Below the pieces are notes generated by a model that saw only the letters and a list, made by a program, of their open reading frames with translations, searched no databases and was not told the DNA's origin. Positions 5,338 to 54,610 of a stretch of DNA of 64,000 nt are shown here, piece by piece. Positions within the stretch are counted from its first letter, which is position 1. Each line of letters opens with the position of its first letter. The DNA comes from Corallococcus macrosporus (lineage in GTDB: Bacteria > Myxococcota > Myxococcia > Myxococcales > Myxococcaceae). The translations under genes and the position numbers were made by a program. The stretch covers positions 635,001 through 699,000 of the forward strand of contig NZ_JAFIMU010000004.1 of assembly GCF_017302985.1 (NCBI RefSeq). The letters run 5' to 3'.

Positions 5338-6708
5338 ATGAGCACGACGTCCACTCGAGGCAAGCCCGACGCTGGCCCCGCGCAGCAGCCGTTCACCTAT
5401 CCGCTTCGCAAGGAGTTCGTGGAGCCCGACTGGCGCCGCATCCCGGGCTACAAGGACGTCACCGCGGCCGAGTGGGAGAGTTCGGTGTGGCAGCGCAAGC
5501 ACACCGTGAAGAACCTGCGCGAGCTGAAGGCGACGCTCGGAGAGCTGCTGCCGGACGACCTGGCCGCGAGCATGGAGCTGGACCAGAAGGAACGGGCGAC
5601 GATGTCCATCCTCGTCCCGCCCCAGATGCTCAACACCATGAACCTGGAGGACCTGTGGAGCGACCCGGTCCGCAGGTACATGCTGCCGGCGCTCGCCGAC
5701 CGCCGCACGGACTGGCCCAACCACCCGCGCGCCAGCCGTGACAGCCTCCACGAGGCGGACATGTGGGTCGTCGAGGGCCTGACACACCGCTATCCGACGA
5801 AGGTGCTGGCGGAGATGCTGCCCACGTGCCCGCAGTACTGCGGCCACTGCACGCGCATGGACCTGGTGGGCAACGACGTCCCGCAGGTGTCCAAGCACAA
5901 GTTCGCGACGGGGCAGAAGGAGCGCTACGAGCAGATGCTGGACTACCTGCGCCGCACGCCCACCGTGCGCGACGTGGTGGTGTCCGGCGGCGACATCGCG
6001 AACCTGCCCATCCAGGCGCTGGAGCCGTTCGTCAGCGCGCTGATGGACATCCCGAACATCCGGGACATCCGCCTGGCGTCCAAGGGGCTCATGGCGCTGC
6101 CGCAGCACTTCCTCCAGGACAACGTGCTGGCGGGGCTGGACCGGCTGGCGAAGAAGGCCGTGGAGCGCGGCGTGGACCTGGCGCTGCACACGCACGTGAA
6201 CCACGCGCAGCAGCTCACGCCGCTCGTGGGCAAGGCGGTGCGCAAGCTGCTGGACATGGGCTTCCGTGACGTGCGCAACCAGGGCGTGCTCTTGCGCGGC
6301 GTGAACGACAGCCCCAAGGCGCTCCTGGACCTGTGCTTCACGCTGCTCGACCACGCGAAGATCCTGCCGTACTACTTCTACATGTGCGACATGATCCCCA
6401 ACAGCGAGCACTGGCGGCTGTCGGTGGCGCAGGCGCAGAAGCTCCAGCACGACATCATGGGCTACATGCCGGGCTTCGCCACGCCGCGCATCGTCTGTGA
6501 CGTGCCGTTCGTGGGGAAGCGGTGGATTCACCAGGTGGCGGAGTACGACCGCGAGCGCGGCATCTCCTACTGGACCAAGAACTACCGCACGAGCGTGGAA
6601 GCCAACGACGCCGGCGCACTTGAGCGGAAGTACGAGTACTTCGACCCCATCGACACGCTGCCGGAGTCCGGCCAGGCGTGGTGGCGGGATCAGCCCAAGG
6701 CGGCGTGA
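5338..6708 (+). CDS. Divergent KamA-family radical SAM protein (lysine 2,3-aminomutase-like)
   Basis: A 456-residue radical SAM protein. CPQYCGHC supplies the iron-sulfur cysteines (Cys164, Cys168, Cys171) in the CxxxCxxC spacing of lysine 2,3-aminomutases. The lysine that would bind PLP is kept (Lys394), but its surroundings read DVPFVGK instead of the family PGGGGK. The C-terminal tail has no cysteines, so the structural zinc site of KamA is absent. Two aspartates at positions that bind the substrate amino group in KamA seem to be kept (YMCDM and CDVP). The ATG at 5338 is chosen over the GTG at 5332 because GAGG sits ten bases upstream. The next gene, a more typical KamA, starts on the last base of this stop codon. 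A divergent amino acid aminomutase is likely; its substrate is unknown. Confidence 0.85.
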   Translation: MSTTSTRGKPDAGPAQQPFTYPLRKEFVEPDWRRIPGYKDVTAAEWESSVWQRKHTVKNLRELKATLGELLPDDLAASMELDQKERATMSILVPPQMLNTMNLEDLWSDPVRRYMLPALADRRTDWPNHPRASRDSLHEADMWVVEGLTHRYPTKVLAEMLPTCPQYCGHCTRMDLVGNDVPQVSKHKFATGQKERYEQMLDYLRRTPTVRDVVVSGGDIANLPIQALEPFVSALMDIPNIRDIRLASKGLMALPQHFLQDNVLAGLDRLAKKAVERGVDLALHTHVNHAQQLTPLVGKAVRKLLDMGFRDVRNQGVLLRGVNDSPKALLDLCFTLLDHAKILPYYFYMCDMIPNSEHWRLSVAQAQKLQHDIMGYMPGFATPRIVCDVPFVGKRWIHQVAEYDRERGISYWTKNYRTSVEANDAGALERKYEYFDPIDTLPESGQAWWRDQPKAA

Positions 6709-7943
6709 TGGACTCCTCCGCGGGCGCGACGGCGCCCATGACGGCCCCCCGTCCCTCGCTCAGTGCCGAGGGGCGGGCCCGGTTGTTCCCGTCCGCCACC
6801 GACGCGGAGTGGACGGACTGGCGCTGGCAGCAGCGTCACTCGGTGCGCAACCTGGAGCAGCTGGAGCGCTACGTGCGCCTGACCCCGGAGGAGCGCGCCG
6901 GGGTGCAGGAGACGTCCTCGCTGTTCCGGATTGGCATCAGCCCGTACTACCTGTCGCTCATCGATCCGGAGCACGCGTCGTGCCCCGTGCGCATGCAGTC
7001 CATTCCGGTGCGCGCGGAGGCCCGGGTGCGGCCCGGGGAGCTGGAGGATCCGCTCGGCGAGGACAAGACGCGCCCGGAGGAGTGCATCGTCCACAAGTAT
7101 CCGGACCGGGTGCTGTTCCTGGCCCTGGATACGTGCTCGGTCTACTGCCGCCACTGCACGCGGCGGCGCATCACCAAGGGCGGCGAGGCGGAGCTCACCA
7201 AGGACCAGATGCGCCGGGGCATCGACTACGTGCGCAGCCACCCGGAGGTGCGCGACGTGCTCATCTCCGGCGGGGATCCGTTCCTGCTGAGCGAGGAGCG
7301 GCTGGAGTCGCTGCTCGCGCCGCTGAGCGAGATTCCCCACGTGGAGATGATCCGCATCGGGACGCGGGTGCCAGTGGTGCTGCCCATGCGCGTCACCGAC
7401 TCGCTGGCGCGGCTGCTGCGCCGCTACGCGCCCGTCTACGTCATCACCCACTTCAACCACCCGAAGGAAGTGACGCCCGAGGCCCGGGAGGCGTGCGAGC
7501 GGCTGGTGGACCATGGCGTGCCGGTGGAGAACCAGGCGGTGCTGATGCGGCAGCTCAACTCGGATGCGCGCATCATCAAGGAACTGTCGCACGCGCTCCT
7601 GCGCAGCCGCGTGCGGCCGTACTACCTGCACCAGATGGACGTGGCGGAAGGCTGCGAGCACCTGCGCACGCCCATCGCCAAGGGGCTGGAGATCCTCCAG
7701 CAGCTTCGCGGCCACACCAGCGGGCTCGCGGTGCCGCACCTCGCGGTGGACCTGCCGGGTGGGGGAGGGAAGGTCACCCTCCAGCCGGACTACGTCATCG
7801 AGCGGGGCGAGCGGGAGACCCTGTTCCGCAACTACAAGGGCCAGATTTACGCCTACCCGGAGCCGGAGGAGACCGACTGCTCCTGCCCGTACGACGAGGT
7901 ATGGCAGGCGCGGTCGCGGGAGCTGGTCTCCCGGAGCCGCTGA
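6708..7943 (+). CDS. kamA: L-lysine 2,3-aminomutase (KamA/AblA family)
   Basis: A 411-residue radical SAM, PLP-dependent enzyme expected to interconvert L-alpha-lysine and L-beta-lysine. Visible features are the cluster motif CSVYCRHC (Cys143, Cys147, Cys150), the PLP motif PGGGGK with Lys355, the substrate-binding aspartates in HQMDVAEG and AVDLPGG, and a C-terminal CSC that matches part of the KamA zinc site. The length fits KamA (about 416) better than the shorter EF-P aminomutase EpmB. The start is the ATG overlapping the preceding TGA by one base, which implies translational coupling. No beta-lysine acetyltransferase (AblB) gene is seen nearby, so a role in osmolyte synthesis versus lysine breakdown is open. 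Confidence 0.88.
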   Translation: MDSSAGATAPMTAPRPSLSAEGRARLFPSATDAEWTDWRWQQRHSVRNLEQLERYVRLTPEERAGVQETSSLFRIGISPYYLSLIDPEHASCPVRMQSIPVRAEARVRPGELEDPLGEDKTRPEECIVHKYPDRVLFLALDTCSVYCRHCTRRRITKGGEAELTKDQMRRGIDYVRSHPEVRDVLISGGDPFLLSEERLESLLAPLSEIPHVEMIRIGTRVPVVLPMRVTDSLARLLRRYAPVYVITHFNHPKEVTPEAREACERLVDHGVPVENQAVLMRQLNSDARIIKELSHALLRSRVRPYYLHQMDVAEGCEHLRTPIAKGLEILQQLRGHTSGLAVPHLAVDLPGGGGKVTLQPDYVIERGERETLFRNYKGQIYAYPEPEETDCSCPYDEVWQARSRELVSRSR

Positions 7944-7960
7944 CGGCCGTCGCGGCGGGG

Positions 7961-8554
7961 CTACCTGCCGCGGCGCGAGCCTGACTTGGACGACTTGCGG
8001 GTGAAGGACTTCTTCACCGTGCCGGCGTTGGAGCCGATGTCCACGACCGGCGCACCGGACGCGGTGCCGTCCAGGCTGCCGTCGACGTCGACGGTGGGCT
8101 CCGCGCCCTCCTCGGACTCCAGCTCCACGGGGTCCGCGTCGCTGAAGCCCTGCTGGATGTGAACCTCGCCGTCACCCTTGCGCTTCTTGGCCTCGGCTTC
8201 CTTCTCCGCCTTGGCCTTGTCGTCGAGCCGCTTGGCCTCGTTGGCGGCGCGCTGGTTGTCGTCGGGCGTCATCCGGGCCGTGAAGTTGGCGAACTCCTTG
8301 GCGGAGACGCCGTGCTTCTCCATGACCTTGGCGGATTCCTTCTGCTGGTCGCGGATGGCCTGGCCGCGCTCGGCGTTGGTCATCTCCGACGGCTTGCGGT
8401 TGCCGTAGTCGGCGTTCACCTTCGCCTGGGCCGCGGCCTCGTCGCGCTGGATGGCCGCCACCTTCTCCGGCGTCAGGCCGTCATCCTCCGCGAGGGCAGG
8501 AGACGCCAGCACGAGCGACGAAGCAGCGAGCATCAACGAGAGACGGGTCATCAT
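7961..8554 (-). CDS. Secreted hypothetical protein with basic tail
   Basis: A 197-residue protein with a clear Sec signal peptide (MMTRLSLMLAASS..., cleavage probably after SPALA). The mature part is charged and alanine-rich, probably helical (about residues 25-130), followed by an acidic stretch and a very basic Ser/Arg/Lys C-terminus ending SGSRRGR. The ATG at 8554 has GAGGAG eight bases upstream and is preferred over a TTG five codons earlier. I recognise no family. It faces the aminomutase genes and is convergent with them. Confidence 0.72.
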   Translation of the reverse strand: MMTRLSLMLAASSLVLASPALAEDDGLTPEKVAAIQRDEAAAQAKVNADYGNRKPSEMTNAERGQAIRDQQKESAKVMEKHGVSAKEFANFTARMTPDDNQRAANEAKRLDDKAKAEKEAEAKKRKGDGEVHIQQGFSDADPVELESEEGAEPTVDVDGSLDGTASGAPVVDIGSNAGTVKKSFTRKSSKSGSRRGR

Positions 8555-8617
8555 GGGGAGGCTCCTCAATCCGGCCCATCATAGGCACGGAGTCCGAGCC
8601 GACGCATGGCCGGTTCT

Positions 8618-8953
8618 TCAGGGTGCCTGACACCGCGTGCAGCCGTCACCCGCGCCCGCGCACTGCTCGCGCGCCCTGGCGCAGCGCGGCGGCAGGTCGT
8701 CGCGGTCCGCCTGCTGCTCCACGAGGCCGCAGAGCTCCTCCGCCGTGGCGCACGTCTTCGCGGAGACGTCGCACTGCTGCGCGCACGTCAGGTCGTCTCC
8801 CTGCTCGCGGGCGCGCAGCTCGTCGAGGCGCGCTTCGATGCCGTCGATGGCCGCGTCGTCGTCCCCGGCCACCCGGGTGTCCACGTGCTTCGCACAGCCC
8901 GTCAGCGTGATTCCCACGATGAGGAGGGCCAGCCATGACCGGGTCGCTCGCAT
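8618..8953 (-). CDS. Small cysteine-rich lipoprotein
   Basis: A 111-residue predicted lipoprotein. A short signal sequence ends in the lipobox LTGC. The mature part has about nine further cysteines in pairs (for example CAQQC and CTRC), suggesting a disulfide-bonded envelope protein. The start at 8953 gives a compact signal peptide with a GGTAGGG-like ribosome site; an ATG at 8965 is an alternative. It lies 38 bases after the sigma-like membrane protein gene, in the same direction, and is probably co-transcribed with it. Function unknown. Confidence 0.65.
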   Translation of the reverse strand: MRATRSWLALLIVGITLTGCAKHVDTRVAGDDDAAIDGIEARLDELRAREQGDDLTCAQQCDVSAKTCATAEELCGLVEQQADRDDLPPRCARAREQCAGAGDGCTRCQAP

Positions 8954-8991
8954 GGCCCTACCCATATGCGTCGGCTCGGGGCCGCGTCCAG

Positions 8992-9540
8992 TCAGCGGCG
9001 CTCGGGGGAGCGCATGCGGCGCTCGGGGCGGGGCTCGGGCTCGGGAGGGCGGCTCCAGTAGAGCCAGGCGGTGAGGGCCAGGAGCGCGGCCACGGCCAGC
9101 CTCCGCAGCCACTCCTCGCGCGCCCGTCCGGGCGAGTCCGCGTCGGCCTCGGCGGCACGGGCCATCGCGGCCTCCACCTCGGGCCCCAGCTCATGCATCC
9201 GCTGACACAGCCGGGCCACGGGGGCGAGCGCCACCGGCACCGGCGCGGTGTCCTTCTCCACGGCCACGGCCAGCATGCGCTCCCAGGCGGTGGCTTCCTC
9301 CTGGCTCTCAGGAGCGCGGGTGGCCAGTTCCAGCTGCCGGGCCAGCGCCTCCGCGGCACGGAGAAGCAGCACGGAGAAGGCGTCGTTGGAGATGCCGTAC
9401 CAGGCCGCGCACTCCGCCAGGGGACGGCGCTCCACCAGCCGGCGGACCAGGACGGCGGCCGTGCGGGGCTCCAGCGCTCGCAGGGCCGCGACGAGGGCCT
9501 CGGGGGACAGGCGGGCGGCATCGGGGACGGAGGCAGTCAC
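8992..9540 (-). CDS. Sigma region 4-like HTH protein with C-terminal membrane helix
   Basis: A 182-residue protein. The first 75 residues resemble the region-4 helix-turn-helix of ECF sigma factors (an ALEPRTAAVLVRR start, then a PLAECAAWYGIS helix-turn-helix). No region 2 is present. The middle is helical and charged, and one hydrophobic segment (about residues 146-160) near the C-terminus is followed by a Pro/Arg tail. The GTG start has GGAG five bases upstream. It may be a membrane-tethered regulator or a degenerate sigma-family protein. It is transcribed toward the small lipoprotein gene and divergently from the SpoIID-like gene. Confidence 0.65.
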   Translation of the reverse strand: MTASVPDAARLSPEALVAALRALEPRTAAVLVRRLVERRPLAECAAWYGISNDAFSVLLLRAAEALARQLELATRAPESQEEATAWERMLAVAVEKDTAPVPVALAPVARLCQRMHELGPEVEAAMARAAEADADSPGRAREEWLRRLAVAALLALTAWLYWSRPPEPEPRPERRMRSPERR

Positions 9541-42439: not shown

Positions 42440-44494
42440 TCAGATGTTGATGCGGGAGCTGACCGTCCGCACGTCCAGGCCCAGGGCCGCGAAGTCCGCG
42501 GCATGGGCCCGGAGCAGCTCCAGCAGGCGGGGATGCAGGTCTTCTTCTTCGTTGGACAGGATGAAGCCGTAGTTCGTCTTGGACAGCATCCAGGAGATCC
42601 ACAGCATCTCCGTCGCTTCATCCGGCGTGGGCGCGACGTCCAGGTCCGCCTCCGTCGACAGCGCGCCTCCCTTGCCCCAGCGCAATCCCAGACAGGAGTA
42701 CAGGACCTCTCCCGCGTCCTCCCACTGGAGGTTGTTCGCCCAGGCGTGCCGGAACGTCGCGAAGAAGATGACGTAGCGGCAGAGACTCTTCAGCGCCTCC
42801 AGCTCACCCGGCTGCGGCGCATCCGTCCGCGTCACCGCGCTCACGGCCTTGGCGGCCGGCTCCGCGACCTTCGCTCCCAAATCCATGCGCTCCGAGCGCA
42901 CGAACCACGGCGCTTCCTTCCCCGGTACCCGCGCCCGCAGGTAACGACAGACGAACGCTGGCGCTGAATGCGCCACCAGGTCGTCCGAGAACCGGTGCAC
43001 CTCCTGCCACTGCGCTTCAATCTCCGCGCCGTGCTCCGCGAAGAACGCGTCGATGTGCTCCCCGAGCAGCTTCCAGAACAGCTGTCCCGCCTGCGCGTAG
43101 CGGTGTCCTTCACAGACCGGCGTCGCGGGCGCGAAGCCCTTCCAGTCGTAGCTGCCCAGCAGGTGTTCCAGCCGCTGGTTGATGCTTCGCTCCGTCAACG
43201 CACTGGCCCGGGAGATGTAGCCCGTGGGGCCCACCAGGAACCCATTGGCGGCGTGGTTGATCAACACCACCTCCCGCAGGTGCGGCATCAGCAGCCAGCG
43301 CAAGGGATTGCGCCTCAGGTTCCGGTGCGCGGCGATGGCGTACTGCTCCACGTTGAAGTGGCATTGCCCCAGGTGGTTGCCCAGCTCCACGTCCAGCGTC
43401 GCGCTCACCCGCGCCATCCGCTTCGCCGCCTCCCAGTCCGCGCCATCCGCGGGCGTGAACGTCCGGCGCGTCACCGGTGAGCCGGGTGCCGTCGCTCCGG
43501 GCTCCCGCATCCCCAGGATGATCCGCTGGGGCATCAGCTTGCCGTCCACCAATCGCAGACGGAGGTCCACGTCCGGCAGGCAGTGCACTCCGTCCTGCTC
43601 ATACGCATTCCAGGGCAGGTACAGCCGGAACGCCTGCGCATCCTCCGGATCCCGGTCCAGGATGCTGGAGAACATCCCGTTGAGCAGCCGCTCCCCGAAC
43701 CAGGCGTCGCTGCGCGAGGAGCCCGGCGACTCGCGCTCCATCCGGACCGTCGTCGTCTCCGGGTAGTCCGCCTGGATCTTCGCGAGGCTCGGTGCCTGCC
43801 CCAGGCGGATCTGCAACTGGTGCTGCCGCTTCACCAGCTCGATGGGCGCGACGGCCTTGAGCATCGCCAGCGCGCGTCCCGGCGCGTAGGCCGTGGGCGG
43901 CGTGCCTTCCTCCACCACCAGCAGCCGGGCCAGCGGCGTCGACGGGTCGTATTCCCAGTACGGCAGCCGGAGCGTCCCGAAGTCGTACTCGTGGCCGCCG
44001 TGGTCGTCCGGCCCCCGCTCCGAACCGATGCGCTTCCATGTCTCCACCACGCGGCCGTCCTGGCGGAACGTGTGCTGCGGTTCGAAGAAGCGCAGCTCCA
44101 GGTCCGGCAGGTCTCCTTCCCCCGCGTCCTCTGGGTCGTAGCGGATCTCGAACGCGCCATCCGGGCCCGTGAAGGATTCGCCCAGGAAGTCGTCCGGCGT
44201 GCCGAGGTCCCGGTCCCACAGCTCGACCTTGAGGTGGTGCAGGGGAATGGGCCCCTGCGGTCCGTCCTGCTCGAACACGAGCCGGCCCCGGGCCCGTGCG
44301 GGCAGGGTGGAGGCATCCCTCAGCGCTCGCGGCGCTCGCACCTGCTTGACCAGGTTGCGGCTCACCGCCAGCCGCTCCTTCAATCCCAGCCCCCCGTACC
44401 ACCGGGCCAGCTCTTCCGCCTCCAGCAGCGGCGGCTCCTGGGCCTTGGAGGAGAACCCCAGCGAGGTCAGCAGGCGGCGCCACGCGGTAGGCAT
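42440..44494 (-). CDS. Lipoxygenase, type with N-terminal transthyretin-like beta domain
   Basis: A 684-residue lipoxygenase that should insert O2 into polyunsaturated fatty acids to make hydroperoxides. All five iron ligands can be placed: His374 and His379 (HLGQCH), His583 and Asn587 (HAWAN), and the C-terminal Ile684. The N-terminal part (about residues 65-175) is not a PLAT domain but a beta-sandwich with a VELWDRD and DDFLGESFTG pattern that resembles transthyretin/carboxypeptidase-regulatory folds. It is convergent with menB and divergent from a second lipoxygenase, 255 bases away. It has no signal peptide, so it is cytoplasmic. Confidence 0.9.
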   Translation of the reverse strand: MPTAWRRLLTSLGFSSKAQEPPLLEAEELARWYGGLGLKERLAVSRNLVKQVRAPRALRDASTLPARARGRLVFEQDGPQGPIPLHHLKVELWDRDLGTPDDFLGESFTGPDGAFEIRYDPEDAGEGDLPDLELRFFEPQHTFRQDGRVVETWKRIGSERGPDDHGGHEYDFGTLRLPYWEYDPSTPLARLLVVEEGTPPTAYAPGRALAMLKAVAPIELVKRQHQLQIRLGQAPSLAKIQADYPETTTVRMERESPGSSRSDAWFGERLLNGMFSSILDRDPEDAQAFRLYLPWNAYEQDGVHCLPDVDLRLRLVDGKLMPQRIILGMREPGATAPGSPVTRRTFTPADGADWEAAKRMARVSATLDVELGNHLGQCHFNVEQYAIAAHRNLRRNPLRWLLMPHLREVVLINHAANGFLVGPTGYISRASALTERSINQRLEHLLGSYDWKGFAPATPVCEGHRYAQAGQLFWKLLGEHIDAFFAEHGAEIEAQWQEVHRFSDDLVAHSAPAFVCRYLRARVPGKEAPWFVRSERMDLGAKVAEPAAKAVSAVTRTDAPQPGELEALKSLCRYVIFFATFRHAWANNLQWEDAGEVLYSCLGLRWGKGGALSTEADLDVAPTPDEATEMLWISWMLSKTNYGFILSNEEEDLHPRLLELLRAHAADFAALGLDVRTVSSRINI

Positions 44495-44749
44495 CAGCGC
44501 CGCGCCTCAATCCCAGCCGTGGTCAGCGACGACCCCCGACAGGTACCGCGGGAACCACCTACAGCAGGGGCGCGACGGGAAGCGGGCTTCATCGCGCGGG
44601 ACGGTACCATGCCTGCGGCAATCCCATACTCGCGCCCTCGTCCCCGAGGGCAGGCGCCTATCGGATCCACGGCAGCCCGCTTCGGTCACCTTCTCCGCGT
44701 GTGCCGTGGCGTCTCCGCACGCCGTGCGCCCCGTGCTAGTGGAGACTTC

Positions 44750-46780
44750 ATGAGTACCGATTACACGCTGACGATTCGCACGAGCTCGAAGCTCGGCGCG
44801 GGGACCAACTCTGCCATCTCCGTGGTCCTGGTGGGCACGAAGGGTGAGAGCCAGCCGTACCGCCTGGACAAGCGCTTCCACAACGACTTCGAGGCCGGCG
44901 CGGTGGACGCCTACACCGTCAAGGCCGAGGACCTGGGCGACCTGCTCCTGCTCCGGTTCTCCAACGCCGGGGGGGGCGTCGGGGGTGACTGGCTCCTCGA
45001 CTCGGTGACCGTCACCACGACGGGGCGGCACTGGTTCTTCCCGTACTACCGCTGGGTCCTGGGCAAGTCCTCCGCCGAAGTGCTCGAGGGCACCGCGCGG
45101 CTGCCCCAGCAGGTCCGCCACGAGCGCGAGCAGGTGGCCCGGACCGACCTGCTCCTGGCCCGCCAGCGCATGTATCCCTGGCGCCCCGCGGAGGCGACCG
45201 CCGGGCTGCCTGGCGCGCTCGACATCACGGAGCAGCGGCCGCTGCCCAAGGACGAGCTCTACCGGGGGCTCGCGGACGGCAGCTACGAGGTCGTCATCGC
45301 CAAGACGCTCGCGGCCATCAAGCTGCACATGCCCGTGCTGAGCAAGGCGTGGAACGGCCTCGTGGACATCTTCGACTTCTTCAAGGGCATCGAGCTGCCC
45401 ACGCTCGCCCAGCGCTGGCAGGACGACGCGGAGTTCGCCCGTCAGGCCGTGCAGGGCATCAGCCCCGTCCACATCCAGTCCATCACCGCACTGCCAGAGG
45501 GAATGCCTCTCACGGACGGTGAGCTGCGCGGCCTGCTCTCTCCGGGCACGACGCTCGAGCAGGCGCTGGCGGGCAAGCGCGTCTTCCTGCTCGACTTCGA
45601 GATCCTGGGCGACGTGCCCATGTTCAAGAAGACCGACAAGGACGGCGTGGAGGAGCGCCGCTGGGCGCCCGCGTCCCGCTGCCTGCTGTACCTGGACGAC
45701 ACGCGGCTGCTGCGGCCCATCGCCATCCAGCTCGGCCGTGACCCGGAGCTGGATCCGGTGTTCACGCCCAATGACAGTCCGCACGACTGGCTGGCCGCGA
45801 AGATCTACGTGCGGTGCAGCGAGGGCAACACGCACCAGATGGTGGGCCACGCGCTGAGGACCCACTTCATCGCCGAGCCGTTCGTCATGGCGACGATGCG
45901 AAACCTCCCGGACCCGCACCCCGTCTACAAGCTGCTGCGCCGGCACTTCCGCTACACGCTCGCCATCAACGACGGCGCCCGGAAGGGCCTGCTCGCCGCG
46001 GGCGGCGTGTTCGACGACCTCATCGCCACCGGCGGCCCGGACCAGGGGCACGTGTTCCTGGGCAAGAAGGGCTACAAGGCCTGGACGCTCGCGGACAACA
46101 AGCCGCGCCCGGACATCGAGCGCCGTGGCGTGCTCGACCCGGCGGTGCTCCCGCACTACCCGTACCGCGACGACTCGCTGCTGCTGTGGGACGCCATCGA
46201 GGAGTACGTCGGCGGGGTGCTGGGGCACTTCTACACGTCGGACGAGGACCTGGTGCGTGACGGCGACATGCAGCGCTGGTGGAAGGACCTCACCGAGCAC
46301 GGCATGCCCGTGGAGAAGCTGCCGTGCGCGGAGCTGAAGCGCGTCTCCGACCTCACGGACATCCTCACCACGGTGCTCTTCACGGTCAGCGTCCAGCACG
46401 CGGCGGTGAACTACCTCCAGTACGAGCACTACGCCTTCGTGCCCAACGCGCCGCTGTGCATGCGCCAGGCGCCGCCGCGCAAGAAGGGCGTCCTGGCGGA
46501 GAAGGACATCCACGAGATGATCCCCTCCAAGACGCAGATGCTCTGGCAGGTGGCGGTGGGCCGCGCGCTGTCCAGCTTCGGAGAGGACGAGGAGTACCTG
46601 CTCCACGACGGCGGCTGGCGCGAGGACTACTTCCAGGAGCCGGAGCTGCTCGCCATCCGCGACCGCTTCCACTCGCGTCTGCGCGCGCAGACCGAGGCGG
46701 TGAAGGCGCGCAACGCGAAGAGCGCGGTGCCCTACACCGTCCTGCAGGCCGACCGCATTCCCTGCGGCATCACCGTCTAG
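44750..46780 (+). CDS. PLAT-domain lipoxygenase (animal-type architecture)
   Basis: A 676-residue lipoxygenase. The N-terminal PLAT/LH2 domain (about residues 3-110) reads like those of animal lipoxygenases (SVVLVGTKGES, FEAGAVDAYTV, WFFPYYRWV). Iron ligands are His362 and His367 (HQMVGH), His550 and Asn554 (HAAVN). The C-terminal residue, which also binds iron, is Val676 rather than the nearly universal Ile; Val occurs at this end in manganese lipoxygenases. GGAG precedes the ATG at 44750. A P450 gene follows after 21 bases, so the hydroperoxide made here is a likely P450 substrate. Confidence 0.92.
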   Translation: MSTDYTLTIRTSSKLGAGTNSAISVVLVGTKGESQPYRLDKRFHNDFEAGAVDAYTVKAEDLGDLLLLRFSNAGGGVGGDWLLDSVTVTTTGRHWFFPYYRWVLGKSSAEVLEGTARLPQQVRHEREQVARTDLLLARQRMYPWRPAEATAGLPGALDITEQRPLPKDELYRGLADGSYEVVIAKTLAAIKLHMPVLSKAWNGLVDIFDFFKGIELPTLAQRWQDDAEFARQAVQGISPVHIQSITALPEGMPLTDGELRGLLSPGTTLEQALAGKRVFLLDFEILGDVPMFKKTDKDGVEERRWAPASRCLLYLDDTRLLRPIAIQLGRDPELDPVFTPNDSPHDWLAAKIYVRCSEGNTHQMVGHALRTHFIAEPFVMATMRNLPDPHPVYKLLRRHFRYTLAINDGARKGLLAAGGVFDDLIATGGPDQGHVFLGKKGYKAWTLADNKPRPDIERRGVLDPAVLPHYPYRDDSLLLWDAIEEYVGGVLGHFYTSDEDLVRDGDMQRWWKDLTEHGMPVEKLPCAELKRVSDLTDILTTVLFTVSVQHAAVNYLQYEHYAFVPNAPLCMRQAPPRKKGVLAEKDIHEMIPSKTQMLWQVAVGRALSSFGEDEEYLLHDGGWREDYFQEPELLAIRDRFHSRLRAQTEAVKARNAKSAVPYTVLQADRIPCGITV

Positions 46781-46801
46781 CGCCGTCAGGAGACACAGCC
46801 C

Positions 46802-48217
46802 GTGCCCAACGCTCTTTCTCGCGGCATCTTCAACCTGTTCTTCGGCGCGAAGCGTAAGCCGTTCGCGTCGCTGCCCGGTCCCCAGCCGGGGATCCTCGGC
46901 ACCGCCGGGGACTTCCTGGGGGCGTCCCCCTGGGACGTCTGCGCCCGCTATGGCCGTGAATACGGCGGCGTCACGCTCATCTGGATGGGGCCCAACCCCG
47001 GGCTGGTGCTCAACGACCCGGAGCTCATCGCGGAGGTCTACGAGTCCCCCCGCCGGATGGAGTTCGAGAAGGGGAACATCAGCGAGCAGATCCGCCCCTC
47101 CACGACGGACGACACGGCGTTCACGGCGGAGCTGCGCGGGGACTGGGTGCAGAAGCGCGCCCTGGAGCCCTCGGCGCAGTCGTGGGCTCCGGGGGCGCTG
47201 GCGGACCAGGTGGGCCCCATGCAGGCGGCCATCTCCGAGTCCCTGGATGCGCTGCTGAAGCAGGAGCGCATCGACGACCTCGCGTCCGTGCTGCGCCGGC
47301 TGACCTTCGACGCGTTGTCGGTGGCTCAGTTGGGGGAGAAGCCGCCGGATCAGGTGTACGAGGACTTCATGCTGCTCGCGAAGGCGGCGGACGCGCGCAT
47401 CCAGTCGAAGCTGCCGCTGAAGTTCGTGAAGCCGCCCAAGGACTTCGAGGCGGTGAAGGCGCGCTTCTACGGGTACTTCGTGGACCGAATCCGCGAGGCG
47501 CGTAAGCGCCAGGACCCGCGTGCCGTGGACATGATGTCGCGCTACCTGCGGGAGACGCCGGGCATCGATGATCAGGTGCTGGCGCACATGCTCGGGGGCA
47601 CGTACTTCGGCGGAGCGTTCTCCTCCAGCGTCACGCTGGTGGGAGCGTTCCACCAGCTCAACAAGTACCCCGAGGCCGACGCGCGCCTCGCCGCCGAGGC
47701 GACGGCGCTGGTGGCGGACAGCCTGCTGACGTCCGGGAAGCTGGAGGGCGCGAAGTGGGCGGAGGCGGTGGCCTACGAAGCGCTGCGCATCCTGCCTGCG
47801 GTCCGGGTGATGACGCGTACGCCATCGAAGGACGCGCAGCTGGCCGGAGTCACGTTGCCGGCGGGTTCGATGATCATGATCTCGAACCAGCACCTGCACC
47901 GGGACCCGAAGCACTGGGAGGACCCGGACACGTTCAAGCCGGAGCGCTGGCTGAACGGAGGCGCGGCGAGAGACCCGCTGGGGAGCGGCTACTTCTTCCC
48001 GTTCGGAAGGGGACCGCGAGCATGCGTGGGCGCGGACTTCGCGATGGTGTTCCTGAAGACAGCGCTGACAACGATTGCGTCACGCGTGAAGGTCCAGCTG
48101 GATTCGACGGAGCCGTTTGAAGAGGGCTTCTTCTTCGGCGTGGTGCTGCCCAAGGGCGTCACCGGGAAGCTTGTCGCCCGGACGGCGCAGGCGTCACTCA
48201 AGGCAAAGGTTGGATGA
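46802..48217 (+). CDS. Cytochrome P450 lacking the acid-alcohol pair
   Basis: A 471-residue soluble P450. The heme-binding loop FPFGRGPRACVG, the ExxR helix (YEALRI) and the meander are intact. The I-helix, which normally has a conserved acid-Thr pair for O2 activation, reads GGTYFGGAFSSS, with Phe273 and Ser274 at those positions. P450s that rearrange hydroperoxides (CYP74, prostacyclin and thromboxane synthases) also lack a working pair. Its gene follows a lipoxygenase by 21 bases with the same orientation, so a role as a fatty-acid hydroperoxide isomerase, lyase or synthase is inferred. GTG start. Confidence 0.88.
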   Translation: MPNALSRGIFNLFFGAKRKPFASLPGPQPGILGTAGDFLGASPWDVCARYGREYGGVTLIWMGPNPGLVLNDPELIAEVYESPRRMEFEKGNISEQIRPSTTDDTAFTAELRGDWVQKRALEPSAQSWAPGALADQVGPMQAAISESLDALLKQERIDDLASVLRRLTFDALSVAQLGEKPPDQVYEDFMLLAKAADARIQSKLPLKFVKPPKDFEAVKARFYGYFVDRIREARKRQDPRAVDMMSRYLRETPGIDDQVLAHMLGGTYFGGAFSSSVTLVGAFHQLNKYPEADARLAAEATALVADSLLTSGKLEGAKWAEAVAYEALRILPAVRVMTRTPSKDAQLAGVTLPAGSMIMISNQHLHRDPKHWEDPDTFKPERWLNGGAARDPLGSGYFFPFGRGPRACVGADFAMVFLKTALTTIASRVKVQLDSTEPFEEGFFFGVVLPKGVTGKLVARTAQASLKAKVG

Positions 48218-48247
48218 ACGGTACCTGCCCTGGTAGGTTGGTACTTC

Positions 48248-49180
48248 ATGCGCGTCCTCCCGCTTCTCAGGTATGGCCTCCTGCTTGTCCTGATCGCCTC
48301 GCCATCCCTGGCGAGGGACGTGTCAGACAAACTCACCATCCGGACGCTCAAGGTCCCAGCCCATCCAGCCCAGGAGGCGTCGTCCATCTATGTCTCCTGG
48401 CAGGTGGTGACAGCGCTTCGGTTCGAGGCGGAAGTTGATCCCGCCAGGACGAAGTTCCTGGGGTGGGAAGGACGTTTCGAAGCGCCGCTGATCGGCGGCA
48501 AGAAGGTCATCCTCGAACCGCTGCGTGAGCTTGATAGCGGCGAAGCGTTACCCCTGCTGGTGACACTCGTTGATGGAACAGAGTTCACGTTCCTCGTGAA
48601 GGCCAAGATCCGGGAGGATTGGGGCTGGATCGACTACCAGGTCAACGTGTTCAAGGACCCGGACAGTTACGATGCGATCCTCTCGTCGCTCTACGACTCG
48701 CTCAGCCGGGAGCGCAAACTGAGTGAGGAGAACGAGCGCTTCAAGAAGGAAGAGAACTCGGTCGACCACGCTTACGCGACGCTTCTTGCGAATGGGCAGG
48801 TCAAGAAGACGCCGTTTCGGCGCGCGAAGTTCTGGCGCTCGAAGAACGAAGACATGGACGTCGTCGTTGAAGTCTTCTCGGGTCCGGAAAAGGCAGCGGC
48901 CGTCATTCACCTGACGAACACCTACCATGGTCAGTCCTGGAGGTTCGACGGGGCCTCTCTCACTCGCGACTCCTCCAGTGACACCGCTCGCCCGTTCGCG
49001 CTTCGCATGAATCGCACAGTCCTCACTTCAGGACAGTCGGGGAGGATCGCCGTCGTTGTCGACAAGAGCGCCTTCGAGGACAAGGACGGGCAACTGGCCG
49101 ATCTGGCCCTCCAGATCTTCCGGGACGATGGACTCCTCCAGGTGTTCGTCGCGATGGATCACACCCTGCTTCGGCAGTAG
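48248..49180 (+). CDS. DUF2381-type secreted protein
   Basis: A 310-residue protein of the myxobacterial paralogous family DUF2381. It has a signal peptide (MRVLPLLRYGLLLVLIASPSLA), a beta-rich N-terminal half, a charged coiled segment (about residues 160-175) and a second beta region. Members are often encoded near Ser/Thr kinases; none is present next to this one. It begins a run of three small genes in DNA of somewhat lower GC than the upstream P450. Function unknown. Confidence 0.75.
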   Translation: MRVLPLLRYGLLLVLIASPSLARDVSDKLTIRTLKVPAHPAQEASSIYVSWQVVTALRFEAEVDPARTKFLGWEGRFEAPLIGGKKVILEPLRELDSGEALPLLVTLVDGTEFTFLVKAKIREDWGWIDYQVNVFKDPDSYDAILSSLYDSLSRERKLSEENERFKKEENSVDHAYATLLANGQVKKTPFRRAKFWRSKNEDMDVVVEVFSGPEKAAAVIHLTNTYHGQSWRFDGASLTRDSSSDTARPFALRMNRTVLTSGQSGRIAVVVDKSAFEDKDGQLADLALQIFRDDGLLQVFVAMDHTLLRQ

Positions 49181-49191
49181 AAGTGGCGCTC

Positions 49192-49683
49192 ATGCGCATG
49201 CCCAAGGCCCTGTTGCTCGGCTCCGTGTTCCTGCTTGGCGCTCCTTCCGGATGCACGACGGCGGGCGGTGTGGCTCTTCGTCCCGACGGCACCCCAGGAC
49301 CGCAGGAGTGCCCGGCGAAGGCGCTCGAAGTCATGCGATACTTGAGGCTGCGCGTTGGGGATGCAGCGCTGGCGGATCTCGATGCCAACCAGATCGACGC
49401 CCGGCGCATCTCGCTCTACGACGGACCCATTGAGAGCATCCTCAAGGACGACATCGGCACCCTTGAGGCGACGACACGCCTGTATGGGCGGGTCTGGACG
49501 AGCGGGCCCCAGGTCGTCATTCGCTGGTACGAGGCCCATCCGCCAGATGGCGACAAGGTTCCCATCTGTGCCGTGGCCCGGCTCAGCAGGGACCAGATGC
49601 GGAAGCTGCCTGACTCAAAGCCTGGAATGGCGATCCTCGACGGCTCCGTTGCGGCTGCCTACATCGTCGATTCTTTTCGCTGA
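49192..49683 (+). CDS. Small lipoprotein
   Basis: A 163-residue predicted lipoprotein. The signal sequence ends at the lipobox PSGC, followed by TTAGG. The mature part has an Asp/Arg-rich alpha-beta pattern ending in IVDSFR. Three starts are possible (GTG 49183, ATG 49192, ATG 49198); 49192 gives a compact signal peptide. The gene follows the DUF2381 gene immediately and was probably acquired with it. Unrecognised. Confidence 0.6.
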   Translation: MRMPKALLLGSVFLLGAPSGCTTAGGVALRPDGTPGPQECPAKALEVMRYLRLRVGDAALADLDANQIDARRISLYDGPIESILKDDIGTLEATTRLYGRVWTSGPQVVIRWYEAHPPDGDKVPICAVARLSRDQMRKLPDSKPGMAILDGSVAAAYIVDSFR

Positions 49684-51892: not shown

Positions 51893-54610
51893 TTAGCTTT
51901 TACCAGAACGTTTGCCCTGTAAATTCTGGGCGTGCCTTAGAATGGCCTCGTATGCAGGTATTGACTCTGCCGGAAATATGTCTGGAGATGAAACCTTTAA
52001 GGTGATTTCGAACAGGCGATTCATGTTGAACAAACGATTTGCTCGCTCGCTATTTAATGTATAGGTCGCAACCTCGCGAAAGACCCCTTCATCCCATCTG
52101 ATTTGGTCTGCTCTGTCGACAATAAACTGGTTGATTTGGGGTAAGACTGCTTCGGGCGCCAGCTCGGCAGCTTCAATGAGCGCGTCAGAAAATGGTCTCC
52201 AATGCGCAAAAGGAAGCCCCTCAAATTTCTTTTGTCTGACTCTGCCGAGGCCCCAGCAGTTGATAAGCAGAGTGGCCGGTTCTGCACCGCGAAGCGCATC
52301 CGCCAAGTGTTTGGGGTCTTTTGATATAAACGAGTCGCAGAGTATTTCGATAAATGAAGCCTTGATTTCCTCAGCTTGGGCTTGCGGAACAAGTTCGGGG
52401 CCAGACCCATCTTTCGTCAAAAAGAAATAGAGGAGAGTGCTGGTCAATTGGAGATTGACCGATGTGGTCAGTTTAATGAGTTCTTTGAGGGTGGATGGAA
52501 GGAGTTCGTTCTCTTTGTCCAGCAGCAGATGCCAGATGGCTATGACGCTTGGCGGATAGCGGTTTCCCCATTCGACGGGTGAGCGCCGCAGTTCAGCGCG
52601 AACAGTGGCGTCCAGGAGTTTGGTCAGTTCATGAGTGCCAAGTAGTAAACCAGCAAAAGCTCTGACTGTATCGAGTTGGGATGCCTTGAGTAGACGGGAC
52701 ACTAGTTCGTTTGAAAAGTGAGATTTCCAAAGAACAATGTCTTTGAGGATGGGTTGGTCCTTTTCTTCGGTGGACAGCGAGTCTTGCGATAGGTAGCGCT
52801 TCCAGTAGTCTCGATGCGATCTTACGGAGAGTCCCTGAGGCTTTATCTTTGCGACTTGCTGTGTCCCCGGCTCTCTCCAGTTCGGAAAGATGAAGTCGAG
52901 AATTTCCTCTATTGCGGCTCGTTTTGGACTTGCTGCCGATCCCCAAAGAGCGTTGAACTGTATTTCAAAGTTTGATTTTGCTTCGGTGTTGGATCTTGAC
53001 TCTCGAGGCCTGCTTTCACTTCTGATTTCGTCGATGTTGTCCACTATTAGAGCGAATACATCTGGCTCTGATGCTCGGAGCAGTGACACTGAGAATAGAT
53101 CATCAAAATCTATTTCGCCTCTTAGTTTGTCCCAGACATCAAGGCATTGGCGGAGGCCATATTTTATTTTGCGTGGATTGTTGCAGATGGTTGCCAGCGC
53201 GACCGGCAAGGTGAACATGTCCTGGGGGACGTAAGGAGCCCAATCGAACCAGTCGGCCGTGGAGTTGCCGCGAAGGTGCTCGCGCGTGGATAGCGATACT
53301 GGATCGATATAGCTCTCTGTTGCCAGACACCCTTTCATGAATGCGGAAAGTGTTTTCCAGATAAATTTTGGTTCGATTGTGGGGAGAGGTTCGACAATTC
53401 TCGCTATTTTCTCGATGTCGAACCTGGCACTCAGTAGGGTCGATGCGAACACGACTTGTATGGAGGTCGCTTCAGATATCGAGTGAAGAAGCGACCGAAG
53501 AGGGGCAAGTCGTTCGACCTCAGGGGGGTGCGTCGTCGATGTAGACCCTGCAAAACGCTCCAAGTCCTCGATCCAGAGAACGAAATGCATATCTAGCGCC
53601 GCAGTTACTTCGTCAAAATCAGAAAGAATTGCGGCGGGCGGACGATTGCGTCGAAACAGTTTGGCCCAGCCAACGCCTGCGTTCTCGATGGTGGAAATAT
53701 ACTCGTCGGGGAGCCCGGCAATGGGAGTTGTGTTGACGTGCCGGCCTAGTTCTTCTGTTAGTGAACTCAATATGCCGTGGATCGCTGCGTCTACTGTGTC
53801 GAATGGCCACAGACTGATGCGCACGACGGCAACGGATTGCCCCAATAAACCCGCATCATTTAATTCGTGGAGTACGAGATTGTAGATAGACGTCTTTCCG
53901 GAGCCGAGTTCGCCGATTAGTGCGATCGTTAGCGCCTTTTCGGTGCGTGCCTTAATTTTGTTTGAGATTCTTTTTGCGATTGGGTTCCGACTGAAGGTGT
54001 CTAGGTCTGGGTGGTTGATTGGAGTGTCATTCTGGACCCAGATTCGTAGTTTCGAAAAGTCGATTGTAGGTGGTGTTGGGGCCGCAGGCTGCGTGGTCGA
54101 TGATGCAGGTGGGCTCAAGCCAAGTAGCGCAGCAACTCGTGATTGCTCGTCGCTTGTCCCAATTGTCGAGGCGAGTAGTGCCGCGACAATGAGTAGCATT
54201 GTAATGAAGCCAATCAAAACAAGTATGTTCATCCATGAGGTGGACAGAAAGCTTCTGATTTCATCCGAACTGAGCCCAGGGCATTGTAGTGCCTGCGTGG
54301 CCGAGGGACTTACGGCAAGGAAGAAGATGAGCCAGATGAAGCCCAAGAGCGCTGCGAACCAGGATGGAGGATATCTCCAGAAATGGCGAAGGCCACTCCA
54401 GGCAGGTGCGCGCTTGCGACCCCATAGAAGTCCGAATCCGATGAGAAGCGTAAGTGCAGGTACCACGGCCCATTCTGCGAAGTCCGTGAAGTCTTTGCAG
54501 TTTGGTGCTAAGTGCAGGGCAAATAATGCGGTTGCACCTGCGGGTAGAGAGAATGCGACGATTTCGAACCAACGCTTAATGATGGCGTTGCGATGTCTTG
54601 CGGTGTTCAA
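51893..54610 (-). CDS. Membrane-anchored KAP-type P-loop NTPase, foreign DNA
   Basis: A 905-residue KAP-like NTPase. Three or four membrane helices lie in the N-terminal 170 residues. The Walker A motif is IGELGSGKTS and the Walker B is FVLWIEDLER, the acidic DLER form typical of KAP ATPases. The rest is a long helical domain. KAP proteins are sporadic, often on mobile elements, and include the phage-exclusion factor PifA. The base composition is very unlike the rest: 53941-54000 has 27 G+C in 60, against 48 in 60 for 14761-14820 in secD. The TTG start is weak. Recently acquired, and a defence role is inferred only from the family and composition. Confidence 0.82.
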   Translation of the reverse strand: MNTARHRNAIIKRWFEIVAFSLPAGATALFALHLAPNCKDFTDFAEWAVVPALTLLIGFGLLWGRKRAPAWSGLRHFWRYPPSWFAALLGFIWLIFFLAVSPSATQALQCPGLSSDEIRSFLSTSWMNILVLIGFITMLLIVAALLASTIGTSDEQSRVAALLGLSPPASSTTQPAAPTPPTIDFSKLRIWVQNDTPINHPDLDTFSRNPIAKRISNKIKARTEKALTIALIGELGSGKTSIYNLVLHELNDAGLLGQSVAVVRISLWPFDTVDAAIHGILSSLTEELGRHVNTTPIAGLPDEYISTIENAGVGWAKLFRRNRPPAAILSDFDEVTAALDMHFVLWIEDLERFAGSTSTTHPPEVERLAPLRSLLHSISEATSIQVVFASTLLSARFDIEKIARIVEPLPTIEPKFIWKTLSAFMKGCLATESYIDPVSLSTREHLRGNSTADWFDWAPYVPQDMFTLPVALATICNNPRKIKYGLRQCLDVWDKLRGEIDFDDLFSVSLLRASEPDVFALIVDNIDEIRSESRPRESRSNTEAKSNFEIQFNALWGSAASPKRAAIEEILDFIFPNWREPGTQQVAKIKPQGLSVRSHRDYWKRYLSQDSLSTEEKDQPILKDIVLWKSHFSNELVSRLLKASQLDTVRAFAGLLLGTHELTKLLDATVRAELRRSPVEWGNRYPPSVIAIWHLLLDKENELLPSTLKELIKLTTSVNLQLTSTLLYFFLTKDGSGPELVPQAQAEEIKASFIEILCDSFISKDPKHLADALRGAEPATLLINCWGLGRVRQKKFEGLPFAHWRPFSDALIEAAELAPEAVLPQINQFIVDRADQIRWDEGVFREVATYTLNSERANRLFNMNRLFEITLKVSSPDIFPAESIPAYEAILRHAQNLQGKRSGKS

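What the first reader, a model, noticed from the sequence alone, without database searches (positions are those of the whole stretch)
42440..48217. Divergent lipoxygenase pair with a linked P450: a candidate bacterial oxylipin pathway
Two lipoxygenases of different architecture (one with a transthyretin-like N-terminal domain, one with an animal-like PLAT domain) are divergent across 255 bases, and a P450 follows the second after 21 bases. Lipoxygenase products are fatty-acid hydroperoxides, and linked P450s in plants and some other organisms convert them to signalling oxylipins. The three genes together suggest a complete route from polyunsaturated fatty acid to a modified oxylipin in a myxobacterium. 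The linkage and residues are seen; the joint pathway is inferred.
Basis: partly seen in the sequence, partly recalled or inferred. Interest (0 to 1): 0.82.

Follow-up and report, generated by a model that had tools for sequence, protein, structure and literature searches.

The report
Conserved lipoxygenase–P450 cassette in myxobacteria
Two fat-oxidising enzymes and a neighbouring heme enzyme are kept together as a set across a family of predatory soil bacteria, which suggests a small pathway that turns polyunsaturated fats into signal-like oxidised lipids; the two fat-oxidising enzymes match ones already studied, while no description of the third was found.

Summary
In detail: LOX1 (42440-44494, minus) and LOX2 (44750-46780, plus) diverge across 255 bases, and a P450 (46802-48217, plus) follows LOX2 after 21. 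The window genus is Corallococcus (by its relatives). In 145 genomes of the order, this LOX2 type occurs in 46, the P450 lies directly behind it in 45, and LOX1 is adjacent in 40 (39 divergent; in one the order is LOX2-P450-LOX1 on one strand). None of 15 other window ORFs tested is shared at 29 loci outside the genus, so the linkage looks selected, not background synteny. The two LOXs correspond to characterised Myxococcus enzymes (12-LOX, and 11-LOX/12S-LOX). The P450 belongs to a subfamily I found only in this bacterial family; I found no report of its function. It is not CYP74-like, but its I-helix has lost the acid of the O2-activating acid-alcohol pair (Phe in 47 of 49 family rows, Thr in 2; 69 of 75 other myxobacterial P450s keep it), and its "GGVF-S" layout resembles fungal hydroperoxide-rearranging P450 domains. 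Best reading: a self-sufficient P450 that rearranges LOX hydroperoxides. Linkage strong; chemistry inferred. No PfaA-type PUFA synthase passed its cut-off in cassette genomes, so substrate may come from outside.

The parts
42440..44494 (-). LOX1: lipoxygenase of the 5ek8 (Cyanothece) type, 684 aa; ortholog of the M. xanthus 12-LOX (MX-LOX2, inferred)
44138..44245 (-). LOX1 residues 84-119, weak transthyretin-like (TTR-52) match inside an N-terminal domain shared with 5ek8
   Evidence: (sub-threshold)
43358..43375 (-). LOX1 H374 and H379, iron-ligand positions
   Evidence: 44 of 44 conserved
42734..42748 (-). LOX1 H583 and N587, iron-ligand positions (HAWAN)
   Evidence: 44 of 44 conserved
44495..44749 (.). 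255-base divergent intergenic region between LOX1 and LOX2
   Evidence: about 77-310 bases in the 38 divergent relatives (alignment ends)
44750..46780 (+). LOX2: animal-like PLAT + lipoxygenase, 676 aa; ortholog of M. fulvus MF-LOX1 / M. xanthus MX-LOX1
45833..45850 (+). LOX2 H362 and H367, iron-ligand positions
   Evidence: 46 of 46
46397..46411 (+). LOX2 H550 and N554 (HAAVN), iron-ligand positions
   Evidence: 46 of 46
46802..48217 (+). P450 of a subfamily found here only in one bacterial family, 471 aa, GTG start
47609..47629 (+). P450 I-helix GGAFSSS (residues 270-276): acid position is F273, alcohol position S274
48002..48031 (+). P450 heme loop FGRGPRACVG (residues 401-410) with heme-ligand Cys408

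Best explanation
LOX2 and the P450 form an operon-like unit, usually with divergent LOX1, that makes an oxylipin. Step 1: LOX1 and/or LOX2 oxygenate a polyunsaturated fatty acid, probably taken from prey or surroundings, to a hydroperoxide (shown in the literature for the Myxococcus orthologs; here by orthology). Step 2: the P450 binds that hydroperoxide, cleaves the O-O bond on its heme iron without O2 or a redox partner, and rearranges it, for example to an epoxy alcohol (hepoxilin type), allene oxide or aldehyde (inferred from linkage and from the lost I-helix acid). It would work like thromboxane synthase or the P450 halves of fungal dioxygenase-P450 fusions, without belonging to CYP74.
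For: Linkage: this LOX2 type is in 46 of 145 genomes of the order, the P450 next to it on the same strand in 45 of 46; gap 11-22 bases in 41 and 45-54 in 3 of the 44 relatives, 21 in the window. At the 29 non-Corallococcus loci (fetched because they hold the P450) LOX2 is present in 29 and LOX1 in 24, while none of 15 other window ORFs is found above 50% identity in the 14-19 kb taken. In G072 the layout is rearranged to LOX2-P450-LOX1 on one strand, yet the three stay together. All three are under purifying selection (dN/dS 0.09-0.24) with correlated protein distances (r 0.90-0.92, not corrected for shared ancestry). Chemistry: the acid position of the P450 I-helix is Phe in 47 of 49 family rows and Thr in the two 33-34% relatives, against D/E in 69 of 75 non-cassette P450s from six genomes, among them 6 of 6 others of the window's own genome. 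Fungal 9R-AOS I-helix IGGVGT(957) and 9S-AOS FGGxxV(958) have the same GG-x-nonacid layout (PMC13049297 Table 3; which residue lies at the acid position of 9S-AOS is not given there). Orthologous LOX activities: MXAN_1745 12-LOX, MXAN_1744 11-LOX (PMC5760719 section 7). LOX2 is the MF-LOX1 type: in L111, L127 and L135 all five determinant residues G359, A410, F424, I425, I603 stand at the published numbers.
Against: I found no assay of the P450. Acid loss is not diagnostic: 6 of 75 control P450s also lack it (L, T or V), and thromboxane synthase keeps its acid and loses the alcohol instead (PMC13049297), whereas this P450 keeps a Ser there. The best PDB matches are ordinary monooxygenases (CYP3A5; ferruginol synthase). 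The LOXs are reported to make hepoxilins alone, without a P450 (PMC5760719 section 8). G075 keeps LOX2 with neither P450 nor LOX1 found, and the rows of one family are not independent events. Neither AlphaFold model was good enough to look at the active site (mean pLDDT 55.8 and 46.6).
Confidence: 0.52

Rival explanations
1. The P450 is an ordinary O2- and electron-dependent monooxygenase that hydroxylates or epoxidises the LOX product (or its alcohol), using a general ferredoxin and reductase of the cell.
For: Canonical heme loop and ExxR; Ser kept at the alcohol position; best PDB relatives are monooxygenases; bacterial P450s often lack a linked redox partner (general knowledge).
Against: The acid used for O2 activation is Phe in all 47 close family rows, while 69 of 75 other P450s in the same bacteria keep it.
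Confidence: 0.25
2. The P450 is a peroxygenase: it uses the LOX hydroperoxide (or H2O2) as oxidant to oxygenate a second lipid, so LOX2 supplies the oxidant and the hydroperoxide is reduced to an alcohol.
For: Tight LOX2-P450 coupling; acid loss fits O2-independent chemistry.
Against: No Arg-Pro pair in the I-helix as recalled for CYP152 peroxygenases; only a weak NCBIfam CypC match (E 6.4e-4, 18.4 bits against cut-off 600).
Confidence: 0.13
3. The cassette is catabolic or protective: it breaks down PUFAs released from prey or blocks lipid peroxidation, and its products are not signals. (This concerns the role and can be true together with any of the chemical readings.)
For: No PfaA-type PUFA synthase above the curated cut-off in any cassette genome (10 of 145 genomes above it, none with the cassette), so PUFAs are probably external; the family is predatory (general knowledge).
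Against: Two LOXs with different reported regiospecificity are a poor design for simple disposal (inference); says nothing against P450 action on LOX products.
Confidence: 0.3
4. The genes sit together by shared ancestry only and are not one pathway.
For: All cassette genomes found are of one family.
Against: None of 15 other window ORFs tested is kept at the 29 non-Corallococcus loci, whereas LOX2 stands by the P450 in 29 of 29 and LOX1 in 24; G072 rearranged but kept the trio.
Confidence: 0.05

Closest known systems
Myxococcus xanthus MXAN_1744 (11-LOX) and MXAN_1745 (12-LOX), hepoxilin/trioxilin route (PMC5760719)
   Same: Two LOXs, by elimination of the same two kinds; the consecutive tags suggest neighbours. 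M. xanthus AM003 carries the same three-gene layout (L121 = L168).
   Different: The paper tested LOX, epoxide hydrolase, COX, PGD synthase and two putative thromboxane synthases (MXAN_0683, MXAN_2304: no activity). 'P450' occurs once, in the introduction; 'operon', 'gene cluster' and 'adjacent' do not occur in its main text. I could not see its supplements.
Myxococcus fulvus MF-LOX1, 12S-LOX (PMC6612559)
   Same: LOX2 family: HAAVN cluster and, in three of 22 orthologs read, all five determinant residues at the published positions.
   Different: Window LOX2 has L424 and V603 at two of those positions; 'P450' and 'neighbor' do not occur in the paper's main text.
Lipoxygenase 5ek8 (Cyanothece, recalled)
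   Same: Homology with LOX1 from residue 66 to the end, including most of the N-terminal domain.
   Different: I did not examine its gene neighbours or product specificity.
CYP74 clan (plant AOS/HPL/EAS; Methylobacterium nodulans HPL named in PMC10813956)
   Same: Would act on LOX hydroperoxides.
   Different: No Asn in the I-helix stretch; canonical heme loop instead of the CYP74 type (latter recalled).
P450 domains of fungal dioxygenase-P450 fusions (9R/9S-AOS; PMC13049297)
   Same: I-helix layout GG-x-nonacid-axial residue; coupled to a fatty-acid dioxygenase.
   Different: Those are fused to a COX-like heme dioxygenase, not next to a lipoxygenase; no sequence family link was tested here.
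Cyanobacterial and coral catalase-related allene oxide synthase-LOX fusions
   Same: A LOX paired with a heme enzyme that uses its product (recalled; the coral fusion 3dy5 is a LOX2 hit).
   Different: Heme partner is catalase-like, not a P450 (recalled).

Membership tests
Lipoxygenase (PF00305) | Domain match above curated cut-off | tested here: met
   LOX2 256.9 bits, LOX1 32.2 bits, cut-off 23.6
Lipoxygenase (PF00305) | Iron ligands H, H, H, N | tested here: met
   LOX1 44 of 44, LOX2 46 of 46 on all four
Lipoxygenase (PF00305) | C-terminal Ile as last iron ligand | tested here: inconclusive
   LOX1: Ile in 44 of 44. LOX2: Val in 44 and Ile in 2 of 46; other LOXs with a terminal Val exist (recalled), and a LOX2-type ortholog is an active LOX (PMC6612559), so this is not taken as exclusion
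Lipoxygenase (PF00305) | Regiospecific PUFA oxygenation by these proteins | not testable with these tools
   Known only for Myxococcus orthologs (PMC5760719, PMC6612559)
M. fulvus MF-LOX1 ortholog group | HAAVN cluster and residues G359, A410, F424, I425, I603 | tested here: met
   All five in L111, L127 and L135 of 22 LOX2 proteins read; window LOX2 has G, A, L, I, V; the 18 orthologs of 675 aa are out of register at these numbers and were not realigned; HAAVN in 21 of 22, HTAVN in L115
Cytochrome P450 (PF00067) | Domain, ExxR, FxxGxxxC heme loop | tested here: met
   161.7 bits; motifs in all 49 rows
O2-activating P450 monooxygenase | Acid-alcohol pair in the I-helix | tested here: not met
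   Acid position F273; alcohol position Ser kept
CYP74 clan | Axial Asn in the I-helix (plant AOS FN321TwGGMKI) | tested here: not met
   Residues 264-284 LGGTYFGGAFSSSVTLVGAFH hold no Asn; reference motif from PMC13049297
CYP74 clan | Sequence closer to CYP74 than to other P450s | tested here: inconclusive
   No chain named as a CYP74 enzyme among the 60 best shown of 363 or of 291; the rest was not listed
CYP74 clan | Hydroperoxide conversion without O2 or reductase | not testable with these tools
   Needs an assay
CYP152 peroxygenase | CypC model above curated cut-off | tested here: not met
   18.4 bits against cut-off 600

The most novel reading that the evidence does not exclude
Myxococcaceae have evolved, independently of plant CYP74, animal CYP5/CYP8 and the fungal dioxygenase-P450 fusions, a self-sufficient hydroperoxide-rearranging P450 that is genetically wired to lipoxygenases, and use its oxylipin as a signal in predation or multicellular development.
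Probability: 0.25. Interest if true: 0.8.

Novelty: new variant of a known kind. Interest (0 to 1): 0.55.

Why it matters
Why a few bacteria carry animal-like lipoxygenases is unexplained. A P450 locked to the LOX genes across a family gives a concrete missing partner: the earlier M. xanthus study tried two thromboxane-synthase candidates from elsewhere in the genome and found them inactive (PMC5760719 section 7). It makes the end product, and its role in myxobacterial predation or development, directly testable in genetically tractable M. xanthus, and could add a new origin of LOX-P450 oxylipin synthesis.

Tried and rejected
Selenocysteine or frameshift in the P450: six matches are flagged '1 TGA'. 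Four were seen (L113, L125, L129, L137): each is a stop near the C-terminus (residue 458-460), overrun by the alignment. Rejected for those; the other two (G072 = L126, and the G048 paralog L136) showed no internal stop.

DUF2381 gene (48248-49180, 30 bases behind the P450) as a fourth member: at the locus in 2 of 15 Corallococcus and 0 of 29 others. Rejected. MenB and the Fe-alcohol dehydrogenase upstream: genus-level neighbours only (11 and 10 of 15; 0 of 29). Rejected.

PUFA synthase: 104 of 145 genomes match the PfaA model at E 1e-100, but only 10 exceed the curated cut-off and none of these has the cassette; the window genome's two matches cover only profile positions 184-919 of 2582, as an ordinary polyketide synthase would.

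P450s beside other myxobacterial LOXs: among the 24 non-cassette LOX loci fetched (L138, L139, L146-L152, L179-L193) three have a P450 in the stretch. L189 is a classical AGHETT P450. L138 and L139 (G074, G073; one genus) carry 33-34% relatives with Thr at the acid position, about 5 kb from a LOX with other ORFs between; suggestive, not counted as linkage.

AlphaFold: P450 pLDDT 55.8, LOX1 46.6; too poor, so no fold search was run. Plasmids: no relative of the P450 at E 1e-30 or of LOX1 at E 1e-5; LOX2 in 8 records, 59-71% covered, at most 32.3% identical. Promoter and terminator scan of 44300-49300: nothing above chance.

My first MAFFT alignment of own-genome P450s slipped the I-helix by two columns and left two rows empty; searches replaced it. 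The control set was 76 loci; L208 proved to be the M. xanthus cassette P450 and was dropped, leaving 75. The 40 extra controls were chosen by hand from the list, from G044, G048 and G074; orthologs of one another are among them, so they are not 75 independent cases. LOX2-P450 gaps were measured from alignment ends and redone from stop and start codons.

I dropped a separate figure of 0.75 for 'P450 acts on a LOX product', which did not fit the sum of the listed readings; no listed odds were changed.
Full report
What is there. LOX1 runs 42440-44494 on the minus strand, LOX2 44750-46780 on the plus strand, 255 bases apart, and the P450 46802-48217 starts with GTG 21 bases after the LOX2 stop. 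LOX2 has a PLAT domain and a lipoxygenase domain and is closest in the PDB to the LOX of an allene oxide synthase-lipoxygenase protein (2fnq) and human 5-LOX. LOX1 matches lipoxygenase 5ek8 (Cyanothece, recalled) from residue 66 to the end (E 3.7e-141); its N-terminal domain gives only a sub-threshold transthyretin-like hit. The four His/Asn iron-ligand positions are conserved in every sequence read (44 LOX1, 46 LOX2).

Where it is. In the same way G119 is M. xanthus AM003, G044 Archangium lansinium, G055 Citreicoccus inhibens and G094 Pyxidicoccus caerfyrddinensis. I did not identify the window's species.

Conservation. I searched 145 genomes of the order with each protein. LOX2 finds a match at E 1e-40 in 52 genomes; in 46 it is the full-length cassette type (67% identity or more), in the other six only a LOX of 31-36%. 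The P450 (58% or more) is in 45 of the 46 (47 of 145 with the two 33-34% relatives), LOX1 in 44 of the 46. LOX2 and P450 are adjacent on one strand in 45 of 46; the exception, G075, has neither P450 nor LOX1 at these thresholds. LOX1 is divergent from LOX2 in 39 of 46 (38 relatives plus the window), downstream of the P450 on the same strand in G072, elsewhere in the genome in G045, G048, G055 and G056, and not found in G046 and G075. I then tested 18 window ORFs against 44 loci, all fetched because they hold the P450: 15 of Corallococcus, 29 of other genera, mostly 19 kb and at least 14 kb outside the genus. Fifteen ORFs other than the cassette are found at 0 of 29 non-Corallococcus loci (over 50% identity), against LOX2 29 and LOX1 24 (the P450's own 29 is by choice of loci). 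Several of those 15 ORFs overlap each other and some may not be genes. This speaks against plain synteny as the reason for the linkage. dN/dS against eight relatives of the genus is 0.09-0.14 (LOX1), 0.11-0.24 (LOX2) and 0.11-0.23 (P450). One relative, G057, has an in-frame TAG in LOX1.

Link to known enzymes. PMC6612559 (passages) reports that M. fulvus MF-LOX1 has an HAAVN iron cluster and specificity residues G359, A410, F424, I425 and I603. Of 22 LOX2 proteins read, 21 have HAAVN (HTAVN in L115), and L111, L127 and L135 show all five residues at those numbers; LOX1 has HAWAN. So LOX2 is the MF-LOX1/MX-LOX1 type and LOX1 the MX-LOX2 type. PMC5760719 (sections 7-9 and passages) assigns 12-LOX activity to MXAN_1745 and 11-LOX to MXAN_1744; PMC6612559 calls MX-LOX2 the 12S-LOX. 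By elimination LOX1 = MXAN_1745 type and LOX2 = MXAN_1744 type; I did not compare the MXAN sequences themselves. The papers disagree on the LOX2 type: 11-LOX with high activity for M. xanthus (PMC5760719), 12S-LOX with 5.6% iron load and low turnover for M. fulvus (PMC6612559).

The P450. It matches PF00067 and has the heme loop FGRGPRACVG and the ExxR motif. In 195 genomes of the phylum it has relatives at E 1e-45 in 47, all of the window's own family; two of these, G073 and G074, are 33-34% relatives. Its closest PDB chains are monooxygenases. In the I-helix, where monooxygenases read A-G-x-E/D-T, it reads G-G-A/V-F-S with small variation: 47 of 49 rows have Phe-Ser and the two 33-34% relatives Thr-Ser. 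In 75 other P450s from the window genome and five relatives, 64 have Glu, 5 Asp, 3 Leu, 2 Thr and 1 Val at that position; none has Phe. PMC13049297 (passages and Table 3) describes self-sufficient P450s that isomerise hydroperoxides or endoperoxides: fungal 9R-AOS reads TxIGGVGT957, 9S-AOS LTAFGGxxV958, thromboxane synthase AGYEI345, plant AOS FN321TwGGMKI. The cassette P450 is most like the fungal 9-AOS layout, a match of a short motif by eye, not of family.

Reading. Shown: gene structure, conservation and linkage, purifying selection, loss of the I-helix acid. From the literature by orthology: LOX activity and S-form products. Inferred: that the P450 takes those hydroperoxides, and that it does so without O2. 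I give 0.52 to the self-sufficient rearrangement; with the monooxygenase and peroxygenase rivals, P450 action on a LOX product in some form is by far the likeliest class. M. xanthus fed arachidonate gives hepoxilins and trioxilins, but the purified LOXs were reported to make hepoxilins themselves (PMC5760719 section 8), so a hepoxilin synthase role for the P450 is one option among several.

Substrate. No genome with the cassette has a PfaA-type PUFA synthase above the curated cut-off. This does not exclude desaturase-made PUFAs, which I did not search for. Prey lipids are a natural source, so the pathway could serve predation; that is inference.

Not in print? My searches listed no paper on a LOX-linked P450 in myxobacteria; only PMC5760719 names any of MXAN_1743-1746 (1744 and 1745). 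Several lists were capped (20 of 55, 20 of 99, 15 of 34), I opened six papers and none in full, and the library lacks most subscription papers, so this is weak evidence of absence.

Verdict. A real three-gene unit, very likely kept by selection; both LOX types already known; the P450 and its coupling appear undescribed. New variant of a known kind (LOX plus heme-enzyme oxylipin pathways), interest 0.55.

Noticed in passing
46775-46777 (LOX2 residue 676): Cassette LOX2 ends in Val in 44 of 46 sequences instead of the usual C-terminal Ile; the nine non-cassette LOXs read in the same batch end in Ile. The M. fulvus ortholog's unexplained 5.6% iron load (PMC6612559) may or may not be related.
   Followed up: partly
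L138 11394-12980 and L139 10088-11578: In G074 and G073 a 33-34% relative of the P450, with Thr at the I-helix acid position, lies about 5 kb from a different LOX (30-31% to LOX2), with ORFs that I did not identify between.
   Followed up: partly
L145 (G066:C776) 6317-8520: A second, partial copy: a LOX2 match of only residues 418-676 followed by a P450 match (residues 40-470) 84% identical to the window's, in a genome that also has the whole cassette.
   Followed up: no
L136 (G048) 7742-9130: A lone P450 paralog (58% identity, same Phe-Ser I-helix) with no LOX match in the 16 kb fetched.
   Followed up: partly
L094 3132-5183: LOX1 of G057 has an in-frame TAG at about residue 241 while no stop was flagged in its LOX2 or P450: LOX1 may be decaying there, or it is a sequencing error.
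   Followed up: no
51893-54610: KAP-family P-loop NTPase, not found at any of the 44 related loci; perhaps a recent insertion.
   Followed up: no
L260, L245, L249, L218, L250, L257: Six control myxobacterial P450s have L, T or V in place of the canonical I-helix acid but keep the Thr, another group without that acid.
   Followed up: no
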